Assembly: GCF_000210295.1 (NCBI RefSeq)
Contig: NC_026743.1
Location: 3,038,001 to 3,102,000 of the forward strand
Reading direction: 5' to 3'
From: Trypanosoma brucei gambiense DAL972
Taxonomy: Eukaryota; Euglenozoa; Kinetoplastea; Trypanosomatida; Trypanosomatidae
DNA: 64,000 nt
The notes below the pieces were generated by a model. That model was not told the DNA's origin. It made no database searches and worked only from the letters and a program-made list of their open reading frames with translations. The number at the start of each line of letters is the position of its first letter. Position 1 is the first letter of the stretch. Made by a program: the position numbers and the translations under genes. Of the stretch, positions 11,904-29,442 are shown piece after piece.

Positions 11904-13833
11904 TTAATTACTTCCTTTGCGTTTTCAAAGCGAATATTGAGGACATAAAGAAGGAGAGCAAGTACCGTAGGCACAACACGCCACTCCCGGCCCAGGGATA
12001 ACAGAAACTATATTCATCAATTGAAAAGTAGATATCAAAGGTTTCAATGTCCCCCAGAGTCAGAGTAGACGCAAGCCGTTGCGGGTGTCAACGCCGCTGG
12101 TAACGCAAACAAGTAAAAGCTAAAAAATTACGTCCTTATCGCAGTCACCCTCCCCCCCCCCCAAAAAAAAACGTCAAGATCGGCCGCGCGTTGAGACAAG
12201 GCAAATAAACCACACATGGGAAAAGAGAATTTGTAGAAGCAAATGAAAACGCACCGCACACGAGCGGTGCAGAAGTACAGAGGTAGCTGGTAAAGAAAAG
12301 AAGTGACACCGAAACGCGCGCCGCCATAGGCTAAGCAACAACCCCCTCCACACAACCCATTTCGTGGAGCGCAACGGCGCTCCGGCGGCAACGACCACGA
12401 CCAGGCGCACCACGATCGGGCACCACGTCGAGGAAAGAAAACAAGGGGCCCCTACACAGCCTCGCCGCAGCAATCCGGAAATGCGCAGCAACCAACCATC
12501 GCGGAGAAGGTTCCGTTGCCCAACTCCGCCGCTAGAAGGGGGAAGGAAAAGAAACACGCAACACCGTGCCAGTTCAGCGCTTTAGAGGGCCCAAACGGTA
12601 TGTTCAAAGGAAAACCTGCTACGGGGAGGAGATTGACAGACGGTTGGTAACTGTCTGGACCTGTTCATTTCGGCTGCGTGTTACCCAAAGGGAGGCGGCG
12701 CTTACATATTCGGGTAACTGCCAGTCGTTATGTGGCTTCCGAGGCTTGTAGAAGGAGGAGGCCGAAACGGTATCAGCTACGTTACCGATTTGTGGTCGGT
12801 GAGCCGCCGATCCTGCGTTTGCTTGTCTTCGTAGGTCGCCAACATTTTCAACATCGACTTTGATGCTCCTTGCTCAGTTACGAGGCTGTTGGTGACTGGA
12901 CCACGCGACCTCGGCGGTTGAAAGCGAAGGTGAACACTGGGGCGGGTAAATTAAAGAAAGTCAACTCCTGGATGTGGGCGGACGGGTCGTTAATTTCGGC
13001 CGGTTTGTTAGCAGTTGTGGCGCTACTGTTTAAGCAGGTGAGGGGTGTGAGACGACACCGCGCACCCAATTATGGGAGGAGTACATCGGTGGAAAGCTGA
13101 CCCAGGGCGCTTACCGACATTGTGAGAAAGCGATGTCAAGGGAGGGGAACGAGTGACAGTGCCCACAAACTTTTCATCTCTTTCATTGGCTTCAAAAAAA
13201 AAAAAAAGGTCCTCTCAGAGTAAAGGGAAAGACTACGCAATCAGTATGGACTAATATGATAAAATCAACTGTAAGGAAGAAAACCCGACGGAGGTAACCT
13301 GATGCCACAACAAACCTCGGCGTGGAAGATGGGAATCATTGCAACTCCGAAAGGGTGGAAGAGAAGTGAGGAGGTAAACAGTTTGAGAGTGATTAAGAAG
13401 CTACATCATGCCGTTGTGAACCCGTGGGTTACACCCCGCTCCCGGTGGTGACTTCTTCAGAGGGAAAGGAAAAAATATTTGGTCAGCTGTGAACATGGGA
13501 CATTGAATCGATCGGTCGGTCAACGTGCGTAGCAGTGGAAAATGGGTCGTACGGCAAAAAATTCAGACAGTGTTCCAGAGATAACTCGGGTAATTCCCCT
13601 AGATCACACCTGACAACACTGCCAATGATGCCTGCTTGTCCGCCAGGAAACGACGTCAACGCCACGAACGATTCGACACATGGGCCCAATAATGTCCTCA
13701 AGGCACTATACTATACAATGGTGGAACGACTCGGCAACTAACCTCATGATAAAGATAGAAAACTGGGAAAGGGCAGCATTTGAACGGCTAAAAAGAACAA
13801 ATAAGGTTAAAAAAAACACAAGGGGAACCACAG
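11904..13833. other. Divergent strand-switch region, likely Pol II start region for the leftward unit
   Basis: Nearly 2 kb between a minus-strand gene and plus-strand material, with no intact gene. Genes diverge from here, and in T. brucei divergent switches are the usual transcription start regions. Short plus-strand frames (for example 12864-13100 and 13301-13450) read like protein in places but have no resemblance I recognise and may be older gene debris. I found no tRNA A/B boxes. Confidence 0.6.
12152..12171 (-). promoter_or_regulatory. G11 tract (minus strand) near the presumed leftward transcription start
   Basis: Eleven consecutive C then nine A on the plus strand, so T9 followed by G11 on the minus strand, about 250 nt upstream of the first leftward gene. 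Runs of nine or more G have been reported as enriched at T. brucei transcription start regions. Long mononucleotide runs also occur elsewhere in this window, so this is only suggestive. Confidence 0.35.
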
Positions 13834-16384
13834 TTGCGACACCCGTGTTGTAGTTTTTTGAAAGAGACAAATTACACTTTGGAAAGCGACTCCGTGTGGT
13901 TTGATTCAGCCTCTTCACACCCCTTTGCGTACGTATATGAGGAGCTTGGATGCGTTGTGAGAGAGCGGCGCAACTTTGAAGAGTGTGATACGGATGACGA
14001 CTTATTAGCTACTCGAAAAGCTCGTAATGTGCATAACAAAAATAAATCCAGCGTATAAGGAGACAGGAACGGTAAACACCCCAATGGAAACGGGAAGGGA
14101 AATGGATGCACAAAGGTTAGTGTCTTGTGTTAGCTTCCGGATTCGTAACGGGGACAACGTCGGCGAGGTAGTAGCACACAGAGTTGCAAAACGTTTAGTG
14201 AAGCAGTACGCGTCGTATGAAGATGGCACCTGCTATCCAGGATATGATGTACTACGTTTGGTGAATGTGTATTTGTTCGTTACGGTTCACGATTGGACAA
14301 GAGGAAGAGGCTTTGGTGGTTGGATACGAAGGTATTATAATTTATGAGGACGGACTCGAATAAATAGCTGGCTCGGGTTTCTTAAAGGTAGTTAAGCCAT
14401 ACACACTGAACACGTGGAAAGGATCCGGAGCCGCATCTGGTCGTGACAGCATCATCGTCGTAGCTCTTGTTATCGAACTTCACCATCTGTACGTCGGGTT
14501 GCGTGGCGGTGAAGTAAACACGTAACTGCCATGACAGACAAAGCTGGTAATGCCAGAGATTCCAGCATATCCTTCCCTCATTGTCTGTCTGGGGATGCTG
14601 TGAAGAGTGCAACCACTCGCCCCTTAATTTGTGCTTTTGGCATTCATCGGTTATACAATGCCATCGTTGCTAGGTGAGGTTGAAATGTTAACAATGTGAT
14701 GCGTAGCGATGTGAACGGAAAGTGCCCTTACATCGCCGACGAAACTGAAAAGGTTTGGAGTGCATGTCTGATTTCTTTACACCCCAGTGCGCCATCAGGT
14801 ACGTGGTTCACGTTGGAATGGGAAGGGGCGGCGAAGTGGCGAGGCATTTTTGTAATCTTAACGGACCTTGTACGTTTACTGTCTTCGTATTCGCGAGAAT
14901 ACACAACGTTACTTTACAAGTTATTGCGCGGCAGAAAGAATGATGTTGAAGCAAAGTGGCGCGGATCGTGCACACACGAAACGGTGGGGACACGGAACTT
15001 GCCAGTTCTACGACACAGCTTCATGTAAGCGATGAGGGAGTAGCTTCATCCCCCTTTAGTAAGAGTGGACATTCAGGCGATATACTCTTACCTTCACCGA
15101 CGTTTGGGATGAGGACGGCGGTGTGGACATTCTGACACGGGTGACCCGGTGGTATTGACGGCTCGCAATCAAAAGTTAGGGGTTAGTTGTGGTATGAACA
15201 GGGTGTCAAAAAATATGCGGGAAAGGCGGCGTTTACCGCCTTTCATTTATACTATAAGTGAATCTGCTCTGCGAGAGGTGAGTCTATGGGAGCACTATCC
15301 TGTTGTTTCGCGGAGGGTGCCATATTTTTTGCGCTCGTCATTAGTGTGGACCGATGGTGTCATAGTCACTACATATGCACCCTCTGACTTAACAGCACGG
15401 AGAGTCACTCAGGTACCAGATTATACGCCACATGTTTGCCGTGTGGTAGTCGCCTTTACGTCACCTTTTATTTTCATGCTTTGCTCTCCGTTGACACACC
15501 GCTGCTTGCCCCATGGCATATTCTGTGGATTTGTTGGGAGATGAGACAGGCTTGTGCCCAGACAAACGTACCGTATTTGAAGTCCAACCTTCTATTCAGA
15601 CAGATAATACTCGCCATCAGCTTACCGAAGTGATGTTAACTGATGAGTTTCGGTGTAGGGCTGTGTTTTTTATTCAGAGAGTTGAAGTGCGATTTATGTG
15701 TCAGGGGCGCCGTTTTCATACATGTACATATCACAAAGGTAGGTGGATGGAAGTGGTTGTTATTTTTTTAAAATGCAAATGAGCACACTTTATTCTAGTC
15801 ATGTCACGCGTAGGCGTGCAGAGGTTACGTTTGAAGCATATTACCCAGTTCGTAAAGCACGCTGAAGACATTGAAAAACACATCACCAGCTATGTTGATT
15901 GACACCACCAGTAGACAAAGCTGACCACTGTGTGTGAACACTTTTTCGCACATGCCAAATTCTTTAGCTATAATACCTATGAGGACGCGGTGTGTTTAGC
16001 TTAGTAGTAGTTTATGGAAGAGGGGGGACATGCTTGTAGGAAATGCTACTTGGTCGTTCGTGTGAAGGCTGTATAGCTCGTGCAGTTGAGCTGATTGCCA
16101 ATGGTGTACTGATGCTACGTCAGCGGTGAGTAAATACTGCTTTATTCGATACTTCTATGTTTCAAGGGGGTTTCTGCTAGATGGTAGTTTTTCACATTTT
16201 TTACTTTCCTTTCCTACACACGAAGTTTACTGTTGTTGGGAAGCAACTATCACGTGCATCGCCGTGGTTATATAAATGTTGTGTGCATTGGAAGTGGTTG
16301 CCCAAACTCCCTCACTACATGAAGGAGGAGGCATGCGTCCTTAGTAAACCCCGAAATACTTGCCTGTCGACGTGCTTCGCGTGA
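13834..16384 (+). pseudogene. Heavily decayed plus-strand gene, parent unknown
   Basis: Protein-like sequence continues for about 2.5 kb on the plus strand but jumps between frames and is crossed by stops. Good stretches, by frame and place, are: VWFDSASSHPFAYVYEELG (near 13900), NVGEVVAHRVAKRLVKQ (about 14157-14207), EEEALVVGYEGIIIYEDG (14301-14354) followed by TAA then more open sequence to about 14517, AIRYVVHVGMGRGGEVARH (about 14790-14846), LYVTFYFHALLSVDTPL (about 15450), TDEFRCRAVFFIQRVEVRF (about 15640-15696), and HITQFVKHAEDIEKHITSY (about 15840-15896). Frame 0 from 15513 to about 16070 is broken by TGA and several TAG codons, then shifts frame at about 16070. I do not recognise the family. 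It could be one gene or two merged relics. Trans-sialidase and cyclase motifs were looked for and not found. Confidence 0.55.
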
Positions 16385-16611
16385 CGTGAAGAGGGAGTTT
16401 ATGTCAGTCGTCTGCCCTCTCCCTCAGGGCCCGACCTGAAATGATGCTGGGGATGTTTAGTATTTCTTTGCTTCTGTACAGTTTTCTTTACGTATATACC
16501 CTTCGTCGCGACGGGCCCCACATGTCTGAGCACAGCTATTGCAGTCCAGAAAGCCCTGTCGCGTTGCATGACTCTCACTACCCCCTGGCATAAAATACTA
16601 CTAACAGTGTG

Positions 16612-16631
16612 TTTTCCTCTCTGTCTTTTAG
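16612..16631 (+). promoter_or_regulatory. Polypyrimidine tract and trans-splice acceptor for the adenylate cyclase
   Basis: A run of T/C with two interruptions ends in TTTTAG, with the AG at 16630-16631. This is a classic trypanosome 3' splice site on the plus strand. Spliced-leader addition here gives a 5' UTR of about 166 nt before the ATG at 16798. Confidence 0.65.
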
Positions 16632-16797
16632 GGCATAACAGTTTCGAGCCGTACAAATCCTTTTAGCTGCCACCGCGTGTTGACGGGGTTACCGCTACAA
16701 GACACTGCAACGACACACATACACAAATATATATATTACAACCTCCTGATCTAGGAAACGGTTCCCTGGTGACTGCAACTGGATAAATCCCTCCGCC

Positions 16798-19700
16798 ATG
16801 AAAGCACCAGCCTTGCTGTTGTTTTTACTGTCAGCATGTGCCGCATCGCCGCCGACGAGGGGAGCCGGGGGTGTACAAGTAACCGTGACAATTGTGTCTC
16901 TGATGTACAGTAAAAACTGGCCTGCTGAATATATTAACGCTGTCAATGCCGGTTTTAACGCATCCCTGGCCGCCCGGAACTGGGTGGTAGCGCCTGGGGT
17001 TAATGTTTCGGTAGTTCCACCCCCGTCGTACGACACCCCAGCATATCAGCACCTGGAGAAGTACTTAGGAAATGTAAAGGACGATAACAGCAGTATGGTG
17101 GTTGTGTTGGGTCCCATGGGCGAAGAGAGCAGCTTTGCCTCGTATGATACCCTGAAGAAACACGGTCTTGTTGGATTCGCTCCTATGACTGGGGCTGCGG
17201 GTTTTCAGACTTACCTTCCACATCTCTATTTTCTTCGCCCTGGTTTTACGGGTGAACTCATAGCCCTTATCCGTTATGCCGTGACTTACCTGCGCGTTCT
17301 CCGGTTGGGGTTTACCTACCTTGAAGGTATGATGGGGGGTACTACCACATACGAGAGTGCTGTGAACTTTTTGTCACGCATGGGATACACGTTTTGTTGT
17401 ATTTTCACAGTGCACGGGACAGCCGAAAGGCGGACGGTAACAGCTAGGGAGTTCGATGTGGCATGGAACGAGTTTGCTGGGAAACTTCCGCAGGCTGTTA
17501 TTGTTGTTGCTACTGTAAATGATGAAATAAAGAATTTCGTCAAGAACCTTGTGGCTGATCCACGCACCGCGGATGCGTACCTGTTGGCTCCCTCACTAAT
17601 GCAGAAGTCGATCGTGACAGTATGGAAGGAGGCATTGGAAGCTGCAAATGCCACTTTTGTCCCTCGTCGCGTAATTCAGACAGGCACCAACCCACTTGCC
17701 AACGACACAGACAGTCGTGCCATTAGTCGCTTTCAAGGTGAGATGCGGGATTATCTTACGGCACATGGGGAATGGGCCGGTGTCGACGACGCAGAGTGCT
17801 TCCTCAAGGACGACGCAGAGGGAGAACTGATGGTTGCTGGTTGGCTCGCTGGAGAGGTGCTATCGCAAGCTCTACGGAGCCATGGATGGATGAACAATCG
17901 CACAGCTTTCATGGAGTCGCTCTACGAGCAACGCCGTTACGTCGTTGACAACATCGTTATTGGTGACTTTGGAGGTGGTTGTGAGGACAATTCTACTGAT
18001 AGCGGTGCCATCTGCCAGTGCAACCGCGGCGGTAGGAAGGTATACATGAAGGAGATTGCAGAGGGCTACCGACTAAGACCGCTTGTTGGCGGCTACATCG
18101 TACAGTCCCAGCTGGAGTGTAATAGTGATCCTGCAATCCTGCAGCCGCCGCTCAGCGGACTCGCCATCCTCATAAATGATCGACAGGAGCTTACGAGGGC
18201 TGTGAAACAGTTTAAAATTGGCACGTCTGCTGTATCTGCAGATGGCGAAGACGATGACGTGGACAGGCTTGTCATTCAGGTATTTGACACAAAGGCGCAT
18301 ACTGCTTTCGACGATCTCAAGGCGCTGCAACAGAGGAAAATTTTAACTGCTTTGTTCGGTGTCGTAACTGAGTCGGTGCTAGAACTCTCGAACGTGACAT
18401 TCATTGACCCAATGGTGCCAGCCCCTCATTTAAACACTTTTAACAGGAATGTGATCCGCCTGTCGCCAACATTGGAGCAGCAGCTTTATGTACATGCGAC
18501 CTACCTGTCTAGCATCCGTGCTGTTAATGTCCACTGTATTGTTAGAAGCACCGAAGCGGCTCGCATCATCGACGTGCTTAGGAAGACGTTGATTACCTTT
18601 GGTCTGAATCTCAGTTCCACAAAAGTATTGGAGGCCAGGACCATGATTAGGGGGAATCTACCGACAAGGGGCAGTGTATTTCTCATTGGGCTCGTCGGCA
18701 CTGACATTGCGGCAATTGAAGAACACCTTCGCACACACGAGAGGACTCTTATATTTGTCCAGTATTCTGACATCGCGTTGCTATACAATGAGTTTGTGCA
18801 AACATTTAACAACACTCATACTGCCGAACGTCTTGTGTTCGCAACAAGTTTACCGCACTGGGCTGACGCCAACACGACATCGGAGACTGTGCGACGGTTC
18901 CAGGACGTTGTATCTGATGTGGCGCTACGGACACCGCTGTCACTGTTGGGTTTTGCCACCGGCAGGTTGATGCAGAGGAACTTGCAGCGTATGCCCAAGG
19001 TGACCCCTGAACTCCTGTCCGACCTCTTCTTCGAAGAAACAGTGATCACTGTCGACGACATGCGCTATGGACCATTCAGGCACTACGATTGCGTAATCAA
19101 CGATGTCGTTACCGAGGATAATTGTATAACAAATTTTGGTGCGGCGGACATCAGTGTGTGGTCGATGGCGCGTGCGCTACGACCACATGAGCCAGTACTG
19201 CAGGAAGCGATGTTTCCGTCGATGAAGTATAACGTTCCTAAAGGTAACGCCCTCACCCCCGCACAACTTGCTGGCGTAATCGGTGGGACCTCGGCAGCCC
19301 TGTTCCTCCTTTTGGGGCTTGGCGTGCTATTGTACTTCGTCCTTCGCGATGGTCGCGACAACGACAACGCGCCCAAGGAGCCAACAGACCCGGTGACGCT
19401 CATCTTCACCGATGTCGAGAGTAGCACTGCGCTGTGGGCTGCTCACCCCGAACTGATGCCGGAGGCCGTTGCAGCTCACCACAGCATGATCCGCTCGCTG
19501 ATTTCCCGTCACGGATGCTACGAGGTGAAGACGGTTGGGGATTCGTTCATGATAGCCTGCAAGAGCCCAACAACCGCAGTCAAGCTTGTGCTCGACTTAC
19601 AGGTGATGTTCATGCAGTACGACTGGGGCTCTTCTGTGTTCGACGATTCGTACCGCGAGTTTGAGTTGCGTAAGGCGGATGATGTCGACGGTTACGCCCC

Positions 19701-20427
19701 ACCAACCGCGCTCCTTGACAGCGCAACGTACGGGCAGTACTGGAACGGGCTGCGAGTGCGAGTTGGTGTGCACACCGGGTTGTGTGATATTAGACATGAT
19801 GAAGTGACGAAGGGTTACGATTATTACGGGCAGGTTCCCAACCTTGCTGCGCGGACGGAAAATGTGACGAACGGCGGGCAGGTGCTGCTAACGCACGCGA
19901 CGTACCTTGCACTCAGCACCGCAGAACGTGAGGAATTTGACGTGACCCCATTGGGTGAAGTACCGTTGCGTGGTGTGCCGGAGCCTGTTGTAATGTACCA
20001 GCTGAACGCCGTTCCCGGCCGCTCTTTTTCTGCACTTCGTTTGGACCGAGTTATTGACGTGCTGGAGGAAGGCGGGGACGGCACAGGCACTTCTGGTAGC
20101 GACCGCGCGTCAACAGTCATCGAGCTGAGTGAATCTGCGCAAGCGATTGCTTCTTCCCTGCTGTCTCTACTGGGGACCCTGACACCCGCACAACGCCACA
20201 GGACGCTCATGCTCTTCTGTGAACGCTGGCGCGTCGCACTTCCTCGTAGCTTGGGCCCCGTATGGGACGATGACGGCTGTCGTGAGGTTATACGGCGCGT
20301 CGCCGCAAAGGTTGGTCACGTTGTAGATTTTCATTCACTGGGAACGAGTGAGCGCTCGTCAAGCACGTTGTCAAGCGCATCGATAATTATTATTCCCAAT
20401 CGGACCACGGATTTTGATAAGTTTTAA
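16798..20427 (+). CDS. GRESAG4: Receptor-type adenylate cyclase, ESAG4/GRESAG4 family
   Basis: A 1209-residue type I membrane enzyme that makes cAMP from ATP at the surface or flagellar membrane. A signal peptide (about 1-20, hydrophobic LLLFLLSACA) leads into a large extracellular region of about 800 residues. This has the two-lobed periplasmic-binding-protein-like fold typical of the family and several N-glycosylation sequons. One transmembrane helix lies at about 826-848. The cytosolic class III cyclase domain starts with FTDVESST. The metal aspartates are Asp872 there and Asp915 in TVGDSFMIA, and the later motifs RVRVGVHTG and NLAARTENVTNGGQ are intact. The C-terminal tail (about 1080-1209) is Ser-rich. 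It is intact and should be active as a dimer. It is the only intact gene on the plus strand, flanked by two pseudogenes, so it forms its own small transcription unit opposite to its neighbours. Confidence 0.96.
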   Translation: MKAPALLLFLLSACAASPPTRGAGGVQVTVTIVSLMYSKNWPAEYINAVNAGFNASLAARNWVVAPGVNVSVVPPPSYDTPAYQHLEKYLGNVKDDNSSMVVVLGPMGEESSFASYDTLKKHGLVGFAPMTGAAGFQTYLPHLYFLRPGFTGELIALIRYAVTYLRVLRLGFTYLEGMMGGTTTYESAVNFLSRMGYTFCCIFTVHGTAERRTVTAREFDVAWNEFAGKLPQAVIVVATVNDEIKNFVKNLVADPRTADAYLLAPSLMQKSIVTVWKEALEAANATFVPRRVIQTGTNPLANDTDSRAISRFQGEMRDYLTAHGEWAGVDDAECFLKDDAEGELMVAGWLAGEVLSQALRSHGWMNNRTAFMESLYEQRRYVVDNIVIGDFGGGCEDNSTDSGAICQCNRGGRKVYMKEIAEGYRLRPLVGGYIVQSQLECNSDPAILQPPLSGLAILINDRQELTRAVKQFKIGTSAVSADGEDDDVDRLVIQVFDTKAHTAFDDLKALQQRKILTALFGVVTESVLELSNVTFIDPMVPAPHLNTFNRNVIRLSPTLEQQLYVHATYLSSIRAVNVHCIVRSTEAARIIDVLRKTLITFGLNLSSTKVLEARTMIRGNLPTRGSVFLIGLVGTDIAAIEEHLRTHERTLIFVQYSDIALLYNEFVQTFNNTHTAERLVFATSLPHWADANTTSETVRRFQDVVSDVALRTPLSLLGFATGRLMQRNLQRMPKVTPELLSDLFFEETVITVDDMRYGPFRHYDCVINDVVTEDNCITNFGAADISVWSMARALRPHEPVLQEAMFPSMKYNVPKGNALTPAQLAGVIGGTSAALFLLLGLGVLLYFVLRDGRDNDNAPKEPTDPVTLIFTDVESSTALWAAHPELMPEAVAAHHSMIRSLISRHGCYEVKTVGDSFMIACKSPTTAVKLVLDLQVMFMQYDWGSSVFDDSYREFELRKADDVDGYAPPTALLDSATYGQYWNGLRVRVGVHTGLCDIRHDEVTKGYDYYGQVPNLAARTENVTNGGQVLLTHATYLALSTAEREEFDVTPLGEVPLRGVPEPVVMYQLNAVPGRSFSALRLDRVIDVLEEGGDGTGTSGSDRASTVIELSESAQAIASSLLSLLGTLTPAQRHRTLMLFCERWRVALPRSLGPVWDDDGCREVIRRVAAKVGHVVDFHSLGTSERSSSTLSSASIIIIPNRTTDFDKF

Positions 20428-22479
20428 GGGTTTTGGGGGGGTTAATAGCACAACAGGAGCCCGAGTCACGTGCCAATACGCCCTCCCGAGCAAAACTCTT
20501 TGCCAGATGTAAAGTGGCTTTGTTGGTTTTCCACTCCCCGCCGGGTGCCTTGTTTTGTTCCTATTAGCTAGTGCCATTTTAAAAAAAATTTGTGGTGAAA
20601 ACGTTTTTTACAATTTCCTCCTTCCCTATGGACAGATATTTTAATAAATAGGAACTAACACATGTGCTTACTAACAAAAGTTATGTTGTTGTGCTGGTAT
20701 CTGAGCGTAGTTGTTGCGCACATATGCGCTAATGGGTTATCGACCTCTCCCGTATTCTACGTTATGGGAGGGAGGGGGGGTTTGGTCTCTTGTGTTTTTC
20801 CCTGCAGTTGGTACTTACACATCATTATGTAACCATGCGCCAAGGAAATTCACCTCCGGCACTGCTAACAAACCTATTTAGGTTATATTAGTGGTAAATA
20901 TTTTTTTTTTCAAGTAATAGTGAACCTCTTTTTTCGAAATATTTTCTTAGCAGCATACATATCTTATGGGGCGAGTGCTCAACAACGTCTCCGGTGGTGA
21001 AATCTTATTATTTTTTTTTTCGTTCCCGATAGCCTGATGGCCTTAACAAACAAGAGAGAGTCTCTGTCACCCTTTCTTACTTACGGTACCCGTCCCTGTG
21101 CTTCGTCAGTGACGTCGCGGTAGCTACACCTGCAACTTTTAATGGAGAAATTTCCTGCAGGTTGTTGTGTACTTTTTCCCTTTTGCTTTCTCTTTTTTTT
21201 TTTTCGTCCACAACGCACAAAAGTGGGATTGGGTTTTGTGGTGATGACACCACCCCAGTACTTTAGCGGAACATGTTGGGCGTATGAAAACTAAAGCTGA
21301 AGGGAAAGTATCTCATGTGATGCCAGTCGTGCCAACGTGAGTCGGAGACCAACGTCTCCACGCTACTTGGAGAGACTGAGAATCACTGGCGTACCATACC
21401 TGCAAAGCGTCGGGGTGTGCGCTAGTGTTTTATCGGTATGATCGCATGCTGCAGGATGCGACAGTGTATTTCTGCCACCTGTGTCGGGTGCGTGCTCCCC
21501 ACAGTCCTGGTTAGTGGGGCGAGCAGCTACGATGTTAAGTGAAAAAAAATTTTAATTGATGGCGGAAAAATGGCCCGATGCTGTCTGTTACTGTTACGTT
21601 GCACGACATCCGGCCATTTTTCCGCCATCGCGGCTAGCCGTGTGAATACATGGTTCCGCTCACATTTACTAACCCCGAGCAGAGGTGCTTGCTGCCACAC
21701 GGCTTCAGCTTGCAGGAGATGGGTGGTGTATTATAATTGTTGTATCCGAAGCACTGAGAGCTGTGCAATGCGAACCTTGTTGGTTGATATTTACACTTGT
21801 TGATGGGATTTTCATGCGCGAACCTTCTCCTCATTCGGATGAAATTTTCTTTCTTTGAGTCGTGTGGACACGTCTTAACAGTCTTTCGTTGCAAGTCTAC
21901 CCAGCTCTTTCTTTCCTTTTGTCGTTGTTTACCTGCGATTCAAAAAGAATGTGTACCTGAAGAAAAATTATCATGTAATCATTTCATCGAGTGTGTGGTG
22001 TGTTATCCCCAAGGCTTGTTGCTTGACGTCGCCGCTACCCAGTTGGCACATCGCCCTCCCTTCGTATCACGCCTCACTAACAGGGTCAAGTGGGTGTGTT
22101 TTGGTTATGTTTGTTTCGAACTGTGAGGACACAATTCCACTCGATTAGAGGCGTTTGTGGAGGTCAACTGTTGGTGCTGTCGTCCACTCACCAGATGTAC
22201 TTCGGTGGAGTCACTCACTCAGGCGGTAATTACGCTAAATCTGTATTTGTTTCTTGTTTTGACCCATCGCGGAGAAATGCCGGTTTGGGGGGAGGGGAGA
22301 GGGGCAACACGTGAAGTGCCCCTCGAAGGAGGTCGGTGGGAAAAACAGAGTGAATGGGAAAAGGGCGGTTGGAAAAGCTCCCCCGAGTGGAACGCCGGTT
22401 ATGAATGGTGGGAGCAGGTGTATGGACTCGGTTGCTAAAAGAAGCCAGGGGAAAGGTTTGCCGCAAGGAGTGGATCTCT
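20428..22479 (+). other. Gene-free spacer after the adenylate cyclase
   Basis: About 2 kb holding the cyclase 3' UTR and several T runs (near 20900, 21010 and 21190) that could act as polypyrimidine tracts for a downstream gene. A strong inverted repeat at 21558-21629 is listed separately. A smaller complementary pair, GGAGAC/GTCTCC, lies at 21344-21359. The frame at 21797-22126 reads partly like protein but has no recognised family. It might be an N-terminal relic of the following pseudogene. Confidence 0.5.
21558..21629. repeat. 72-nt near-perfect inverted repeat (23-bp arms)
   Basis: The left arm 21558-21580 is the reverse complement of the right arm 21607-21629 at 22 of 23 positions. The arms include an uninterrupted 18-bp match (GATGGCGGAAAAATGGCC). 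The loop is 26 nt. A perfect 10-bp palindrome CGGCTAGCCG follows at 21631-21640. It could be a small transposon relic, a hairpin RNA or a structured UTR element. It does not match the ingi/RIME 5' signature as I remember it. Confidence 0.9.
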
Positions 22480-24360
22480 CAAAGAAGGAAAGGATACACG
22501 CTGGTGCCGAAGAAGAGAGCTCCGTTTAGGGAACAAAAAGGAACAAAGTGGATGTGCAGCGTCCACTCTCTCCGTGGCCTTCCGTTTGTTGAAATTAGTG
22601 GGGTATTGGTGGGCATTGCCGACACGTACGGTACATTTCAACTGCTGATTTCACCTTCACTGAGACAGTTGCCACCTACAGTGCTGACGGTGGGGCCAGT
22701 TGAGACACCAACACCGACATTGGGAACACCTGTGTGAACTCTAATTTCCCCCCTGTTGTCGATCCCACAGTTGGTATCAAGGAAAATAATATATTCGTTC
22801 TCGTGGGAAGGTGTAGCTCTTCCAGTAAGCATTGGACATGGAAACATTACGGTGAAAACTGGGATATACTCATGTACAATGGTACTGAAAAAGGAAGCAG
22901 GATCTGGTATGCCAGTCGTAACCGTAAAGTGGAACAGACTCCAAAAATTGAAATATCTTTTACCAGCGCTGCTTCCCCTTGGAGATAAATCTCCATTACG
23001 GTTCCTCGGTGGTGCAGGAAGCGCGGCCAGCACATCAAGTGATCCGCTTGCCTTCCCCACTTACGCGAAGAACACACGGAGGCATACAGCTGCAGAGATG
23101 TTGTATTAGGTTGGTGATGGCAAAATGTGGCCCCTTGCCGTAGGTGAGACGCCCGTTGGTGTGATGGGGACTTTTGTTTCTCGGTGAAATTAGATTTCTT
23201 AATGGTAGGACCTGCCCGAGATACCGCACGATGCTCGAGTCGAAAGGCGTTGGTGCAACGTGGAATGAGCTGCTTGGAACTGTGCCCAGCGCGGTTGGCA
23301 ACTCACCAAACCATAGACGACCCGGAAACACCGAGAGGACCATCATATTAAAGGTTGAAGACGTTCTCGTGATCTTCTTTACTCGGCCGAAAACACGAGG
23401 GGGACTCCGGCGGCGTGATCGCACCCGCCCATGGCCAGCGAATGGCAGTCGGACATATACCTCGCGACATTGAATAAATTCCTTATATTTCTTTCTTCTA
23501 TGTGAACGGCCGATCGCCCACCTGCTCGTATGAACAAAACTGCCACAGAAGTTCTCACCATTTGCCTTGCACGCCCTGTGGGCAAATTCGAGGTTGTCAA
23601 GTCTACGGTGAGGTTATGGAACTAACAAGATAAACTGCTGTGCGGTACGTGGCCTTCCGTGACGGAATCCCTGCGCCGCCTGCGCCGTCAGTTTGCTCGG
23701 AGGCCCCCCTGGTGTAAGAGTGTGGATTGATGATCTTGACACTGTTGTATAGTTGCCAGCCGTTATTGTGGGGAAAGGAAAAGCAGTTTCAAGCGAGCGA
23801 ACCGTCACATGGCGAGCGCGGCAGTGATGTTGCACGTGCACGCCCTCATCCTTAGCCAAAGGTGTTTTTTTTCGCGCTGCTTCCGTTTCGGGAAACCTCA
23901 CGAGGGCTGCAGCTCGAGATTTTTATTTGGCATACTTCGATGATTTCCCATAACCTTTGCACACCAATTTGGTAAATACGGGAGGTACGGGGGGCGAGCC
24001 ACACACACACACACACACATCAACCATAGCTTTTAAAGGAGTAGGTGTAAACGATACATCAACAGAATTTTTGTTTTGCTTGGGAAATGCCACTTTAGGG
24101 GATGGGGAACAATTTATGGTCGATGATGAGGCTTCCCGGGCATTTTGGAAAAGAAGGATGGAATTGCTCAGGGTCTGGTGGTTAAAGTTTTGCAATGGGA
24201 GTGTGCCGAGTCCCTTCCCACAACTTTTTCCTCACTCGAGTGAGTGGCCCGACTTTTACGTGTCGTCTCCCGGTTGTTTCGGTGGCGATGCTTCTGAATG
24301 TTTTCAGTCAAATGAACAGGAAGAAGGAGCCGTGCCCCTCAGTAGGAAAGGTGGCGTACG
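22480..24360 (+). pseudogene. Trans-sialidase (sialidase superfamily) pseudogene
   Basis: A broken plus-strand gene clearly of the trypanosome trans-sialidase family, read in pieces across all three frames. Frame 1 from 22561 has VHSLRGLPFVEISGVLVG. Frame 0 from 22629 has RYISTADFTFTETVATYSAD, ending at an Asp box whose Trp position is TGA (22701-22703). The same frame continues with VVDPTVGIKENNIFVLVGR and NWDILMYNGTEKG. Frame 1 from 22909 gives RFLGGAG, then TAG at 23107 inside a second Asp-box region (VGDGKMW). Frame 2 from about 23205 gives RYRTMLESKGVGATWNELLG and GNSPNHRRPG. Frame 1 near 23542 gives EVLTICLARPVG. Frame 0 near 23661 gives DGIPAPPAP. Frame 2 from about 24030 resembles the C-terminal lectin-like domain (VGVNDTSTEFLF, DFYVSSPG). 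The length fits a full gene of about 1.9 kb or more. At least two stops and about six frame changes make it non-functional. Confidence 0.85.
24000..24019. repeat. (CA)n microsatellite inside the trans-sialidase pseudogene
   Basis: About ten CA units lying between the propeller-derived and lectin-derived parts of the pseudogene. They have no counterpart in the family, so they are probably expanded after decay. A (GT)n run at 24396-24413 lies just beyond the recognisable end. Confidence 0.9.
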
Positions 24361-25686
24361 GTGGATCATTTCGCACAGCATTGGAGGGCTTCGGATGTGT
24401 GTGTGTGTGTGTGGGAAATTCTTCCCATACTGCAGGGATAAAAAAGGGTTTCCCGGATTCTATCCTCTTGTCTGTGTTTCCCGATGTCGCGGCAGACCCC
24501 TTTTAGGCTGCTACCGTGGGTTTTACATGCAGTAGGGCTTTGCTGAGAGAAGGTGCGCGGGTAGGTCAAAAGAAAAAGACACAAACCGTAGGGAAAAGTG
24601 ATCATTTCGCCAGCGTCTGAAAAGAAAATCCCCACTTTACCAATTTTTCTAACGGCGAGGGGCTTCACCACGAATAATTTTATAAGCGCAAGTTCGTGCG
24701 TCGCCGGTGTCAGGGGAAGTGGGCTTCATCAGGGCAAACGGCAGTGACACCAACATTCGCTCGCTCCTGTACAAAAAGAAAATGAATAGGGTGCAAAAGG
24801 TAATAAATCAAAAGAAAAAAAAAAGGAAAAAGGCGAAAAGGAAAAAAAACGAAACGTCTTAACTAAGTTGGTGTACAAGACACGAAATTTTATATCGTCC
24901 CTTCAATAAGGAGCGGACTTCATGTTGAACGCCCAGGCACACACAATCTCCCCGTCAGTTGTGGTGGGAAGCGACTAGAGAGGACGCGGTGTGCCAAACT
25001 TTCTCGTCACCACTGGACCCCGTAGTGCTGTAACTGTATTTTCGTGTGTGCAGAGGGGAGGATCATATTCTGCCGCGTCGGTACGACACATGGCGCCGCA
25101 TTTTGTTAGTGTCAGAAGGACACGCCCTTCGTGGCAGTAGCCGCGGATGGCGGACGGTTTTCTTTTTTCTCCCCCCCCCCTGCACATCTCTACCCCTCAT
25201 GCGCAAACCTTTCCATCGTTAATTTGCCGTCATGGTGCAACATTCCCCCAATCGTTACGGGCGGTCGTTCTAATACACAACGTAGTCCCAATCTTAACCC
25301 TTTTCCGGTTCCAACATTTTGATGCAATATTTTTTTCCGCATGGAGTAATGACCCTTTCCTCGCAGCACCATGCATTTCCGTTACACAGTTCCCATGTTT
25401 CCACGCAGTCGCAGTGTGTGCGACCACCGCTTCTGAGTTCTCTGTTTAACAAACAATATAATGCACATGCCCACCGAGTAAAACACCCCGCAACCAGCCA
25501 AAAGGGGGAAAAAAAGACGTCCGCTACTCGATTCCCGCTTCTTCACCGCACTCACCTTTACGAGCGCAGCATTGTACGGAACGTACACGGCACTCACCAT
25601 CCTCGATGGCGTTTGCGGCGTCTCTGGAGCTGGCTCCGGTTGCAATAACCCTTTTTTTTTTCATGTCACCCACGTTCTTCGCTATG
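24361..25686. other. Convergent strand-switch region
   Basis: About 1.3 kb between plus-strand pseudogene material and the 3' end of a minus-strand gene. It contains a (GT)n run (24396-24413), purine-rich A/G runs at about 24770-24850 and a C10 tract at 25171-25180. No gene, tRNA or snRNA was recognised. Convergent switches in T. brucei are usual transcription termination regions, marked by H3.V/H4.V and base J; none of that is visible in sequence. Confidence 0.55.
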
Positions 25687-28600
25687 TTAGCTGTGAAACC
25701 AGCGGACGAGGTATTCGGGATAACTTCGCGTACCGGGTGACGGCACCGACAATTCCCACTGACCTGCCGCGGGCCCGCTGCCTCTCACCATCGCGCATCG
25801 CTGCACAACAAAGAGGTCGGTGTCAGGCCCCGCTGACGGTACGCAACATGTTTCCATTTCGTCCTCATCACTCACCACAGCCCCCAGTGCGACGCGGAAC
25901 GCGATTGCCCACGTGGCCCACGGGTTGTCATCGTTGCGTGTTTGTTTTTTGGCCTCCATCCACGGCGGAACAAATGCAAACCGGCATTTTTCTTCCTTAG
26001 TCCCCTCGAGACATATTTGCCATGCCTCCTCCTCGTCCTTGCAGTTGTACCACAAGAATCGTTCGTTGACCTCACAATCGTCGCTGCACGGTAAGAAGTG
26101 AGGTTGCTCTCTCAACGCCACCGGCACTGAAAAAGAACTACACCCGCGCGCCAGCACCAGTTGCTGGCGATATTTCCAATATGTTTCCCACAAGTAAATG
26201 TTACGGTTGAGAAACACCGCGGTGCCCTGAGGTGATCGGTGCATGAGAACGCGGTTGTCTGGAAACAACGAGACAGGCCCCATGTTTTTTTGCGCTGTCC
26301 AATACGGCGGGTAGGAAACCTCCTTGGTAAAGAGGTATTGACGTTCGTCACAATCATAGTTTACTTTGATAAGGCGCCGTACGAAGCCTCTTGCATCCAG
26401 CAGACTCCAACGAGGCTCCAGTTTACCCGTCAAACGGTCAGCGACTTCCAGAAACACATTAAACATTTCCCTTATCTGTTGCTCGGCCTGGCCGCATCCA
26501 GTCACCACACCTGAAGAGGCCCTGTCGTCACTAGCGTTGCGATGGGGAGAAGATTTGGTCTGCGGCAGGGTACCACGAAGGTATGGGAGTACTTCAGCGT
26601 GTAGAGTCACTCCAAAGTCAGCAGCGTCATCCTGAGCGGTTTTCGTCCCGTATTTGTGCACCTTCAGGGAGTTTGAAAAAAATCCGAGCGTCGTATTTCC
26701 AAAGTCATCATGTGTGAAGTTGGACATGCAGATATCGCCATGGGTTACCTGGCACGAGTGAATGTCAATAATAGCCTGCAAGGCGCCGTGGAGCCATCGA
26801 ACCCCGTGTTGTTTGATTCTTTTTAAGATGTCCTGGGGTGAGCTAAATCGCACTTGTGTTCCGCCCCGGGGTAGATGAAAATATATTTGATTTGTGTGCT
26901 CATCACCGAATACTTCAATTGCAGAGGTCACGCGACAGGACGCGCACGTCTCCTGAAGTCGCAGCTCACGTTCCATGAGGGTTTTGAATACCTTGGTTGT
27001 TTGTACCGAAGACTCATTTTCATATTTTGGGAATGTATACCGCTTGAGCCAGCATGGTGTAACGGTGCCGCTGATGGGATCCACATACTCAGCGCACAAC
27101 AGGGCAAACTCGATTTCGTTGATCTCTTTTCCATCTTTTAACACCATCCCCTGATAGGTTGCAGGTTTGTGGGGCTCCAATACATTTCGAGGCTCAACCA
27201 CAACGTGCTTGTAACTCACTAAGGTACGTTCACGCTCGTATTTTACATAGCGCCGAATTTCACATTTTTGGTGCGCGCAACGGGCGCAGGAGGAAGGCAG
27301 CAATTTGAAGAACCCAATATTTTCTGGCAGGTGCACACTGTAGATATTGTATAACTCGCACGTGGCGGCGTCTACCTCCGTAAACACTTGGTGAAAAAGC
27401 AAACTTTCCTTTGTGTCCCCTTCACGTTGTTCGCTCGACTTCAATTTTTCCTTCTTAGTGGTAGATTTGGAGGTTCGCCCCTCTACTTCATGCGTTGCGT
27501 GCCGCAGTGACGCAACACTCTTCATTTTGCTGTCCCGCGCTCTGTAATATTCCTTGCACGTTTCCCGTAGTCGCTGGTGCGTATCAACGGCGTGTGCTCC
27601 CGAAAGCGCAAACCCCGCAATAAGCCCGATGATTTTCACCTCATCCGCGAATTCCACCGTCCTCTCATCTTCTGTTTCATCAGATTCTTCCAACGAATCG
27701 CTGTCGCCGGTGCAGAGTGCTTGTATCGCGGTCTGTATGTCAAACAGCGTACTGAGTGTCTGTCCCGTCCCCGCCACCACTGTTACATCAGCAGTGGCAC
27801 CGGTGTGCTGCTTGAAAAAGCTGTGGGCGAGGCTTTGTGCGGTTTTCCACAACTCAAATGCCTCGATCAACTTGCCGGTCACGTGCTTTGGAAAGCAAGT
27901 TGCGACAATTGTCCTCCTTAGATCCTCACGCTTTGCCACCGCCTCACATTTTGTGCACCACCGGAAATCATAGCAGGAACGCTCGACGGGTAAAACGGTC
28001 GTTGCGGTATCCCTCGCAGCGACTTCATCCGCGATGTGAACAAATACATGCATTCTGATGAACATGTGCACGTTGACCTTGAGCCGCGACCATCCCTCAT
28101 AATCCCTGTGCAGCTGTTTCAACCACGAAAACGGAACTGCCTCGGTTGTGAGTTGGTAACAACGCTGAATAGCGGCTAGTACTACACAGATGCTGTGCTG
28201 CGTCGTCGAAGCTTTCGTTTCCGAAACTGCGTATTCCTCATCAGCGATACTTTCATCCGGCTCGTCCACGCTAAGTTCCTCCAGTTCGCTCAACTCCAGT
28301 GGGGTCCCCGCTTCTAACGCCAAGAATCCACTGTCACACAGCTCTTGGGCTTCTTGTGAAGAGTTCTTTCCAGTACGAAACAGCGATTGCAGGAAGCTCA
28401 CAACGGCATTCTTCTTTCGTTTTCGGGGGCGCCGCGCACCATCTGTGTGGATTGCTTCCTCATTTTCTTGACACAAACGCCGGCAATCCTCATGCCAGCC
28501 CTGGCAGAAGGCGTAGACCTCAAAGTCATGGTTCAGCACACCCGTCAACTCACCGCTCCCGCCTCTGTCGGGGTGGTGCACGAGCAAAAGTGCTCTGTAA

Positions 28601-29442
28601 ACCTTTCTGCACTCATTGCGTTCGTTTACAAAACCCCACTTCCGCTGCAGCTGAACTATCGCAAAATGCTGGAAGGATATAGGCATCAACGCAATATTAG
28701 CCGAGGCACGGTACTCGCTAATATCCGTGAGACCCTCCCACCCGCATGCCACTCGGTAATCTCTGTAGTGTTGGACGATACGGCATGTCTCAAAGGAGAG
28801 CAGGCAATGCTGTGGTTCGAGTAGTTCCTCGAAGCGCCTCCGGGCCCCCTGTTCGTTACGGGGGTACCCGTACTGTCTCCTAAGCTTAATTTTAAGAATT
28901 AGACGATCAACATGCCGAGTGAGTAGCGTTACAACGCAGAAGTTTAAAGCAACAGAAAGCACTGTAGTTGCAATAACTTGCCCAACCACTGGAATGGAAC
29001 CCAACCCGATCAGCGATCCAATGGCGTATCCAATCGCCAAGCCAGTGGCTGCGGTTCCAACCTCCTTGCCAATGCGCAACGCCAAATCCGTACGATCCAT
29101 TGGCAATCCCAATACGTTAAGCGCCCCACGCCGGTAGTCGCTGACAGCGCGGAATGACTCGTATGCAGCGACCGCTGCCGCCGCTATCGGGTTGGCCACA
29201 GTTGCCGAAAAGACAAGGTTGGTTGTGATGCTCACACCCGTGCGAGCAGCACCATCAACAATATCTCCCCTCTTCAAAGCAAGAACCGACTCGTGGGAGT
29301 TTGTTGGGGAAACGGTGTGATCCGATGCATTCTGAGGTGTAAGCGACAGTTGAATGTTTTCCTGCGTCGGGTCCTCCTCTCGTCGTTTTGATTCATCATC
29401 ATCAACAATAATAAACTCACTGGCATCTTCCTTATCCGTCAT
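25687..29442 (-). CDS. J-domain protein with membrane-hairpin-like segment and C-terminal pseudokinase
   Basis: A 1251-residue multidomain protein. Residues about 125-175 form a glycine-rich hydrophobic stretch (GYAIGSLIGLGSIPVVGQV) that could insert in or lie on a membrane. A J domain follows at about 260-320, with the HPD motif at His290-Asp292. It should stimulate an Hsp70. The middle (about 330-680) is acidic and charged, without a recognised fold. Residues about 780-1030 look like a protein kinase: a VAIK-like CWLKRY (Lys800), a helix-C-like MERELRLQ (Glu826), a hinge-like YFHLPRGG and a catalytic loop THGDICMSNF (Asp903, Asn908). The DFG is replaced by LGFFS, so magnesium binding is probably lost. 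A DDAADFGVTL stretch matches the helix-F region. The last 200 residues are unrecognised. It is the first minus-strand gene after the convergent junction. I know no standard family with this layout. Confidence 0.85.
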   Translation of the reverse strand: MTDKEDASEFIIVDDDESKRREEDPTQENIQLSLTPQNASDHTVSPTNSHESVLALKRGDIVDGAARTGVSITTNLVFSATVANPIAAAAVAAYESFRAVSDYRRGALNVLGLPMDRTDLALRIGKEVGTAATGLAIGYAIGSLIGLGSIPVVGQVIATTVLSVALNFCVVTLLTRHVDRLILKIKLRRQYGYPRNEQGARRRFEELLEPQHCLLSFETCRIVQHYRDYRVACGWEGLTDISEYRASANIALMPISFQHFAIVQLQRKWGFVNERNECRKVYRALLLVHHPDRGGSGELTGVLNHDFEVYAFCQGWHEDCRRLCQENEEAIHTDGARRPRKRKKNAVVSFLQSLFRTGKNSSQEAQELCDSGFLALEAGTPLELSELEELSVDEPDESIADEEYAVSETKASTTQHSICVVLAAIQRCYQLTTEAVPFSWLKQLHRDYEGWSRLKVNVHMFIRMHVFVHIADEVAARDTATTVLPVERSCYDFRWCTKCEAVAKREDLRRTIVATCFPKHVTGKLIEAFELWKTAQSLAHSFFKQHTGATADVTVVAGTGQTLSTLFDIQTAIQALCTGDSDSLEESDETEDERTVEFADEVKIIGLIAGFALSGAHAVDTHQRLRETCKEYYRARDSKMKSVASLRHATHEVEGRTSKSTTKKEKLKSSEQREGDTKESLLFHQVFTEVDAATCELYNIYSVHLPENIGFFKLLPSSCARCAHQKCEIRRYVKYERERTLVSYKHVVVEPRNVLEPHKPATYQGMVLKDGKEINEIEFALLCAEYVDPISGTVTPCWLKRYTFPKYENESSVQTTKVFKTLMERELRLQETCASCRVTSAIEVFGDEHTNQIYFHLPRGGTQVRFSSPQDILKRIKQHGVRWLHGALQAIIDIHSCQVTHGDICMSNFTHDDFGNTTLGFFSNSLKVHKYGTKTAQDDAADFGVTLHAEVLPYLRGTLPQTKSSPHRNASDDRASSGVVTGCGQAEQQIREMFNVFLEVADRLTGKLEPRWSLLDARGFVRRLIKVNYDCDERQYLFTKEVSYPPYWTAQKNMGPVSLFPDNRVLMHRSPQGTAVFLNRNIYLWETYWKYRQQLVLARGCSSFSVPVALREQPHFLPCSDDCEVNERFLWYNCKDEEEAWQICLEGTKEEKCRFAFVPPWMEAKKQTRNDDNPWATWAIAFRVALGAVVSDEDEMETCCVPSAGPDTDLFVVQRCAMVRGSGPAAGQWELSVPSPGTRSYPEYLVRWFHS

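What the first reader, a model, noticed from the sequence alone, without database searches (positions are those of the whole stretch)
22480..24360. Unannotated-looking trans-sialidase pseudogene beside an adenylate cyclase
Pieces of a trans-sialidase can be read in order across all three plus-strand frames: the HSLRGLPFVEISGV start, YSADGG Asp box, VVDPTVGIKENNIFVLVGR, RFLGGAG, LESKGVGATWNELLG, and a lectin-like end. One Asp box has its Trp position changed to TGA at 22701-22703. Frame breaks hide it from ordinary ORF calling, yet order and spacing are those of a full-length gene.
Basis: partly seen in the sequence, partly recalled or inferred. Interest (0 to 1): 0.8.

Follow-up and report, generated by a model that had tools for sequence, protein, structure and literature searches.

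The report
Broken trans-sialidase gene in sleeping-sickness trypanosome
Next to a receptor-type adenylate cyclase on chromosome 10 of a sleeping-sickness trypanosome lies a long-dead, apparently chimeric copy of a trans-sialidase (a parasite surface sugar-transferring enzyme) that has lost its end; it is a real but fairly ordinary gene fossil.

Summary
Confirmed: 22244-23732 (+) is a decayed trans-sialidase (TS) gene. A DNA profile of four intact TS genes of the same genome finds it as its only match in the window (E 7.8e-199; nothing in the reversed window). Of 9 TS places found in it, only this one is split into several pieces.

New: the relic looks mosaic. Up to about 22889 it is 82-83% identical to the TS genes of contigs 5 and 7 (inferred SA B and SA B2), after that 54%, equally far from those of contigs 5, 7 and 8. 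The four intact own-genome pairs tested show no such fall there; T. congolense relatives show a smaller one. The cyclase's closest relative lies beside SA B2, and about 3.7 kb upstream of the two cyclases is 95-98% identical, so the two loci have exchanged DNA. Most likely a non-functional fossil of ectopic recombination. Annotation status was not testable.

The parts
22244..23732 (+). trans-sialidase relic (whole recognisable span)
   Evidence: single nhmmer hit of a 4-paralogue DNA profile, E 7.8e-199, model 49-1597; pieces at C10:3060304-3061734 in six-frame protein searches
22299..22888 (+). 5' tract, SA B/SA B2-like (82-83% nt)
   Evidence: 485/585 and 480/585 identical columns to L002 and L003 (counted to 22887); change point 22889, 2-lnL interval 22885-22898, 0 of 200 shuffles reach it; also found by plain DNA search
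22889..23732 (+). 3' tract, deep trans-sialidase lineage, about 54% nt to the paralogues of contigs 5, 7 and 8 alike
   Evidence: 459/842, 459/842, 458/842 to L002, L003, L001 and 421/833 to L004 (counted from 22888); piecewise protein scores nearly tied
22229..22444 (+). protein piece, profile 12-83
   Evidence: hmmsearch iE 2.3e-16, X at stops
22429..22626 (+). protein piece, profile 77-144
   Evidence: hmmsearch iE 9.4e-22
22623..22889 (+). protein piece, profile 143-231, with first Asp-box place
   Evidence: hmmsearch iE 1.4e-37; the overlapping stretch 22704-22985 matches trans-sialidase chain 1mr5_A, E 1.1e-6
22882..23169 (+). protein piece, profile 230-325
   Evidence: hmmsearch iE 3.5e-17
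23219..23458 (+). protein piece, profile 351-430, with a later Asp-box-like place
   Evidence: hmmsearch iE 2.3e-16
23539..23658 (+). protein piece, profile 462-501
   Evidence: hmmsearch iE 1.1e-7
16798..20427 (+). receptor-type adenylate cyclase (GRESAG 4), open frame of 1209 aa
   Evidence: Pfam; 99% to T. b. brucei TREU927 protein P0023
12883..16974 (+). upstream tract shared with the contig 7 SA B2/cyclase locus: 95-98% from 13276 to about cyclase nt 177, 70% at 12883-13227
   Evidence: the contig 7 side holds a run of 380 N within the tract
25687..29442 (-). next long ORF, opposite strand (no Pfam match): makes 20428-25686 a convergent strand-switch region

Best explanation
22244-23732 is a dead, 3'-truncated trans-sialidase gene in the convergent strand-switch region after a receptor-type adenylate cyclase on T. 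b. gambiense contig 10. Shown: homology, order, frame breaks, no detectable lectin end, a step in identity at about 22889. Inferred: a TS gene of an old lineage had its 5' half replaced, by ectopic recombination in the T. brucei line, with sequence from an SA B/SA B2-type gene, and the chimera then decayed as a unit. It makes no trans-sialidase; if transcribed, it is part of or downstream of the cyclase's 3' region. The data require no function.
For: Profile hit E 7.8e-199 in one collinear span, no hit in the reversed window. Eight other TS loci in the genome, none with a stop inside the matched stretch. 83% versus 54% identity with a sharp change point against L002 and L003; 0 of 4 intact own-genome pairs shows a fall there. 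Frame-breaking gaps are about equally dense in both halves (3 in 589 bp, 5 in 845 bp; Fisher p 1.0). Differences are in excess at third codon positions in both halves (27/28/50 and 102/110/171; chi-square p 0.008 and 1.4e-5), as for once-coding DNA. Exchange between this locus and contig 7 is visible separately: 3.7 kb at 95-98% upstream of the cyclases, ending at cyclase nt 177.
Against: SA B2 (L003) also becomes less like its T. congolense relatives at this point, P0003 (0.73 to 0.63) and P0004 (0.76 to 0.61), so part of the step may be uneven conservation. Eight frame-breaking gaps are too few to show equal age of decay. The third-position excess in the 5' half means that not all its divergence is neutral decay. 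Among the intact pairs, the fits for L003-L001 and L003-L004 are weak with broad intervals that include 22889, though there identity rises, not falls. The order of TS and cyclase differs between contigs 7 and 10, so a simple block duplication does not fit.
Confidence: 0.85

Rival explanations
1. A plain duplicate of an SA B/SA B2 gene that decayed everywhere, with no chimera; the 3' half merely changed faster.
For: The 5' half is closest to SA B/SA B2; SA B2 against T. congolense P0003 and P0004 also falls after residue 242.
Against: Identity falls from 83% to 54% within an interval of about 14 bases while frame-breaking gaps stay about equally dense; after the step the relic is as close to L001 as to L003.
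Confidence: 0.12
2. Assembly or sequencing errors break a gene that is really intact.
For: The genome is a draft assembly ordered on the T. b. brucei reference (PMC2854126, passages).
Against: 8 frame-breaking gaps against L003, stops in 4 of 6 pieces, 17-46% divergence and an undetectable last third; the neighbouring 1209-codon cyclase is open and 99% identical to TREU927.
Confidence: 0.02
3. The relic has a regulatory role: convergent transcription makes small RNAs from it that match SA B/SA B2 mRNAs.
For: It lies in a convergent region; PMC3447711 (passages) reports siRNA accumulation at each of 49 convergent units surveyed, and cites a bloodstream-form study in which VSG and RHS pseudogenes gave small RNAs; the relic has 24 positions with an exact 21-mer of L003 (SA B2) and 20 with one of L002 (SA B), and exact runs of at least 30 but under 40 bases with L003.
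Against: The same paper saw no mRNA change without DCL2 at the two convergent units tested and found only two siRNA-making pseudogenes in procyclic cells; PMC4721609 says the function, if any, of such siRNAs is unknown (passages). No read data could be examined.
Confidence: 0.04
4. Chance resemblance or an unrelated protein.
For: Single fragments score weakly: Pfam BNR_3 E 0.0012-0.11 for 3 of 10 pieces; the first piece alone finds a sialidase only at E 0.85, below an antibody chain at 0.44.
Against: E 7.8e-199 collinear hit, none in the reversed window.
Confidence: 0.001

Closest known systems
TbSA B2 (L003, C7:2197807-2200254; 99% to TREU927 protein P0001) and TbSA B (L002, C5:201232-203661)
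   Same: 5' tract 22299-22887, 82-83% nt identity
   Different: Both have an open frame of 816 residues with the end part; the relic's 3' half is only 54.5% identical and the end is not found. The names rest on PMC3795030 (passages) plus contig number; the step from gene to name is inferred.
Contig 8 trans-sialidase L001 and T. congolense IL3000 proteins P0003/P0004
   Same: The 3' half is as close to these as to SA B/SA B2 (L001 by DNA; all by piece scores)
   Different: The 5' half is further from them (summed piece scores 344, 561 and 325 against 758 for L003; P0004, 654 aa, appears to lack the N-terminal part, which lowers its score)
Trans-sialidase and sialidase chains 1mr5_A and 1n1s_A in the PDB (T. 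cruzi and T. rangeli, recalled)
   Same: Catalytic-domain sequence around the VVDPTV stretch, E 1.1e-6 and 0.0019
   Different: Distant; active enzymes with a complete lectin domain (recalled)
Shuffling of catalytic and lectin parts among African TS genes
   Same: PMC3855035 (section 12 read) reports that lectin domains of T. brucei and T. congolense TS do not group in the same orthologue pairs as the full genes
   Different: There the joint is between domains of intact genes; here the step lies inside the catalytic domain of a dead gene

Membership tests
Trypanosome trans-sialidase family (as a sequence relic) | Collinear homology to the catalytic domain of intact family members | tested here: met
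   nhmmer E 7.8e-199; pieces
Trypanosome trans-sialidase family (as a sequence relic) | Asp-box motifs (motif recalled) at family positions | tested here: met
   Two Asp-box-like places line up with the paralogues; the first has a stop in place of its Trp codon (read; pieces)
Functional trans-sialidase gene | One open reading frame | tested here: not met
   Pieces change frame repeatedly; stops in 4 of 6 pieces
Functional trans-sialidase gene | C-terminal lectin domain | tested here: not met
   No hit of the end-part profile to 23600-25686 at E<=10; homology ends at about 23732
Functional trans-sialidase gene | Signal peptide and GPI-anchor signal | tested here: inconclusive
   The profile match begins near residue 17 with 36-47% nt identity to L001-L004 at 22244-22298; the anchor end is not found with the last third. 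No signal-peptide predictor was run.
Functional trans-sialidase gene | Enzyme activity | not testable with these tools
   -
Pseudogene | Homology to an intact gene plus disabling lesions | tested here: met
Pseudogene | Lack of a translated product | not tested
   No expression data available here

The most novel reading that the evidence does not exclude
The relic is a chimera whose 3' half is the last trace in T. brucei of a trans-sialidase lineage otherwise lost there, and, lying in a convergent transcription region with exact 21-mer matches to SA B and SA B2, it feeds small RNAs that tune those two surface enzymes.
Probability: 0.03. Interest if true: 0.6.

Novelty: new member of a known kind. 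Interest (0 to 1): 0.22.

Why it matters
T. brucei has a small trans-sialidase family (9 members cited in PMC3855035, passages). A further, dead and apparently chimeric place suggests that ectopic recombination between TS loci reaches inside the catalytic domain, and it ties a contig 10 cyclase locus to the SA B2/cyclase locus of contig 7. The small-RNA idea can be checked in published read sets. Otherwise it is a normal gene fossil.

Tried and rejected
Lectin-like end at 23954-24532: rejected. One of seven paralogues (L004) scored slightly above the 95th shuffle percentile; I take this to come from the stretch before 23746 that the same paralogue matches in the same frame. On the whole window the end-part profile gave four matches at E 1.4-9.8, none of them in 23600-25686.

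Simple block duplication of a TS-cyclase pair: the window's cyclase and L018 lie in one clade with GRESAG 4.3 that excludes T. congolense P0026 (99/98), and the TS 5' tract is closest to SA B/SA B2. But the order differs (contig 7: TS then cyclase on its strand; contig 10: cyclase then TS), no TS relic was found in the 6.3 kb after and 5.5 kb before the contig 7 cyclase (the latter with 380 N), and the cyclase pair differs more at third positions (592/1204) than the TS 5' tract does from L003 (50/195). Kept only as shared locus history. The contig 5 cyclase near SA B (L048) is not close (43%).

Retroposon or repeat origin: apart from the TS stretch itself and one inverted match of 20428-22539 to itself, no other copy of 20428-22539 or 23481-25686 was found in the genome (that search skips simple repeats and very common words). 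Rfam: no match at gathering threshold in 11000-26000.

Annotation status: not testable; considers only proteins of 0.55-1.75 times 816 residues. Paper searches, whose listings are capped, showed no paper that I recognised from title and abstract start as describing this locus; supplements could not be read. This is no proof of absence.

Full report
What the window is. It is G000:C10:3038001-3102000 of a 22,148,088-base genome in 11 contigs. Contig lengths 3,899,268 (C10), 4,531,609 (C11) and 1,432,056 (C4) equal those given with proteins named T. b. gambiense DAL972 (P0037, P0032, P0046), so the genome is that assembly. PMC2854126 (passages) describes a draft of which 22.1 Mb was ordered on T. 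b. brucei 927. That contig numbers are chromosome numbers is inferred.

The observation. tblastn with own-genome trans-sialidases gives ordered pieces from 22241 to 23746. A DNA profile of four paralogues (L001-L004) gives one match in the whole window, 22244-23732 on +, model 49-1597, E 7.8e-199, and none in the reversed window at E<=10. A protein profile, run on frames with X at stops, gives six plus-frame pieces with independent E-values from 1.4e-37 to 1.1e-7; three minus-frame matches have E 2.8-5. Genome-wide, P0001 (the TREU927 protein 99% identical to L003) finds 13 matches at 9 places: eight places give one match each without a stop inside (one of them, L006, being a shortened gene), and the ninth, this one, accounts for 5 of the 13. 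T. congolense P0003 gives the same split, 5 of 13. Taken singly, pieces are weak: in Pfam BNR_3 at E 0.0043, 0.11 and 0.0012 for 3 of 10 pieces, with two other pieces matching unrelated families at E 0.09 and 0.15. By PDB sequence, 22704-22985 hits trans-sialidase 1mr5_A at E 1.1e-6, while the first piece finds a sialidase only at E 0.85, below antibody chains at 0.44 and 0.59.

What is wrong in the finding. The homology does not begin at 22480 and does not reach 24360. Nothing of the C-terminal lectin part is found in 23600-25686. The relic stops near residue 532 of 816 (model position 1597).

Mosaic. In an alignment of the unaltered relic with seven paralogues (L006, shortened, was left out), 22299-22887 is 485/585 identical to L002 (contig 5), 480/585 to L003 (contig 7), 278/483 to L001 (contig 8) and 301/570 to L004. 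From 22888 to 23732 the values are 459/842, 459/842, 458/842 and 421/833; L005, L007 and L008 are at 36-43% in both parts. A change-point fit over 22329-23732 puts the step at 22889 (interval 22885-22898) with gains of 65.6 and 67.5 log units against L003 and L002; 0 of 200 shuffles reach it (maxima 10.0 and 9.0). The relic against L001 and L004 shows no significant step (29 and 17 of 200 shuffles reach the gain). Of four intact pairs, none falls there: L003-L001 is not significant (36 of 200), L003-L004 is borderline and rises (6 of 200), and L002-L003 and L001-L004 have smaller significant steps elsewhere (22465 and 23208; 0 of 200 each). Against this reading, L003 and its T. congolense relatives P0003 and P0004 also become less alike after residue 242 (0.73 to 0.63; 0.76 to 0.61); the other seven pairs looked at change by 0.02 or less. 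Frame-breaking gaps against L003 are 3 in 589 and 5 in 845 bases, about the same density (Fisher p 1.0), but the numbers are small. In both halves differences are in excess at third codon positions, so the DNA was once under coding constraint. By summed piece scores the 5' half is nearest SA B/SA B2 (733-759 for L002, L003, P0001, P0002, against 561 for T. congolense P0003); the 3' half is a near-tie (P0004 408, P0003 405, P0007 398, L001 397, P0005 386, L003 377). I infer that an old trans-sialidase gene received an SA B-like 5' half in the T. brucei line, and that the chimera then decayed.

Surroundings. The gene upstream is a receptor-type adenylate cyclase with an open frame, 99% identical to a TREU927 protein. 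ORFs from 25687 onward run the other way (one + ORF of 164 aa at 62529 overlaps a - ORF), so the relic lies in a convergent strand-switch region. I compared the cyclase with 31 loci (30 of the 58 matches plus L048); one of the 31, L021, is the window's own gene. The closest of the rest is L018 on contig 7 (66%; next 53.6%), and in the protein database the closest after its own TREU927 copy is L018's TREU927 counterpart P0024 (66%; L018-P0024 98.5%). L018 lies roughly 6-7 kb from SA B2. In a tree of 31 rows both fall in one clade with GRESAG 4.3 that excludes T. congolense P0026 (99/98); inside it L018 groups with GRESAG 4.3 at only 84/84. Window 13276 to cyclase nt 177 (about 16974) is 95-98% identical to contig 7 upstream of L018; within the cyclase, identity falls from 0.95 to 0.69 at nt 177 (0 of 100 shuffles reach this). 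By identity this exchange is more recent than the trans-sialidase step. Of 9 trans-sialidase places, 3 (contigs 5, 7, 10) have a cyclase within 10 kb and 6 have none listed within 50 kb (positions; one search's counts are lower bounds).

How it works. Most likely it does not: it is a fossil. T. brucei convergent units make siRNAs (PMC3447711, passages: each of 49 surveyed), and the relic has 24 positions with an exact 21-mer of L003 and 20 with one of L002, so siRNAs acting on SA B and SA B2 are possible. The same paper found no mRNA effect at the two units tested and only two siRNA-making pseudogenes in procyclic cells; PMC4721609 (passages) leaves the function open. I give this 4%.

Known or new. 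PMC3855035 (passages; section 12) cites 9 T. brucei members and reports domain shuffling in the family. PMC3795030 (passages) names SA B and SA B2 in T. b. gambiense. PMC3605285 (passages) treats trans-sialidases as Fam47 and places several T. brucei-specific surface genes at strand-switch regions. I did not see this locus in the passages I read; annotation databases and supplements were out of reach. It is a new member of a known kind.

Noticed in passing
window 12883-16974; about C7:2191540-2196344: About 3.7 kb upstream of the cyclase (no ATG ORF of 150 aa), plus its first 177 nt, is 95-98% identical between contigs 10 and 7, with an abrupt end inside the cyclase gene and a 70% stretch beyond its other end. 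The contig 7 side holds a 380-N run whose two sides both match window 16160-16414, so that gap is probably an assembly artefact.
   Followed up: partly
window 21557-21630: A hairpin with arms of about 19 bp (predicted -43.8 kcal/mol, z -6.5) between the cyclase and the relic; its 15-base arm word occurs in the genome only as these two arms.
   Followed up: partly
L006 (C7:1946278-1950036) and L004 (C11:2205600-2209619): The contig 7 trans-sialidase frame is cut at 427 residues and is 98.5% identical over 389 residues to a 771-residue copy on contig 11; TREU927 has a 771-residue protein on a 2,205,233-base contig (P0008). PMC2854126 mentions a trans-sialidase and ESAG insertion after Tb11.02.5830 in T. 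b. gambiense (passages).
   Followed up: no
L002 versus L003: SA B and SA B2 rise from 84% to 94% nt identity at a point aligned with window 22465 (interval 22359-22549; 0 of 200 shuffles), which may be a conversion tract between contigs 5 and 7.
   Followed up: no
L008 (C11:3021363-3025295), L007 (C5:115854-119843): Very diverged trans-sialidase-like genes (22-32% to the other own-genome members) on long branches.
   Followed up: no
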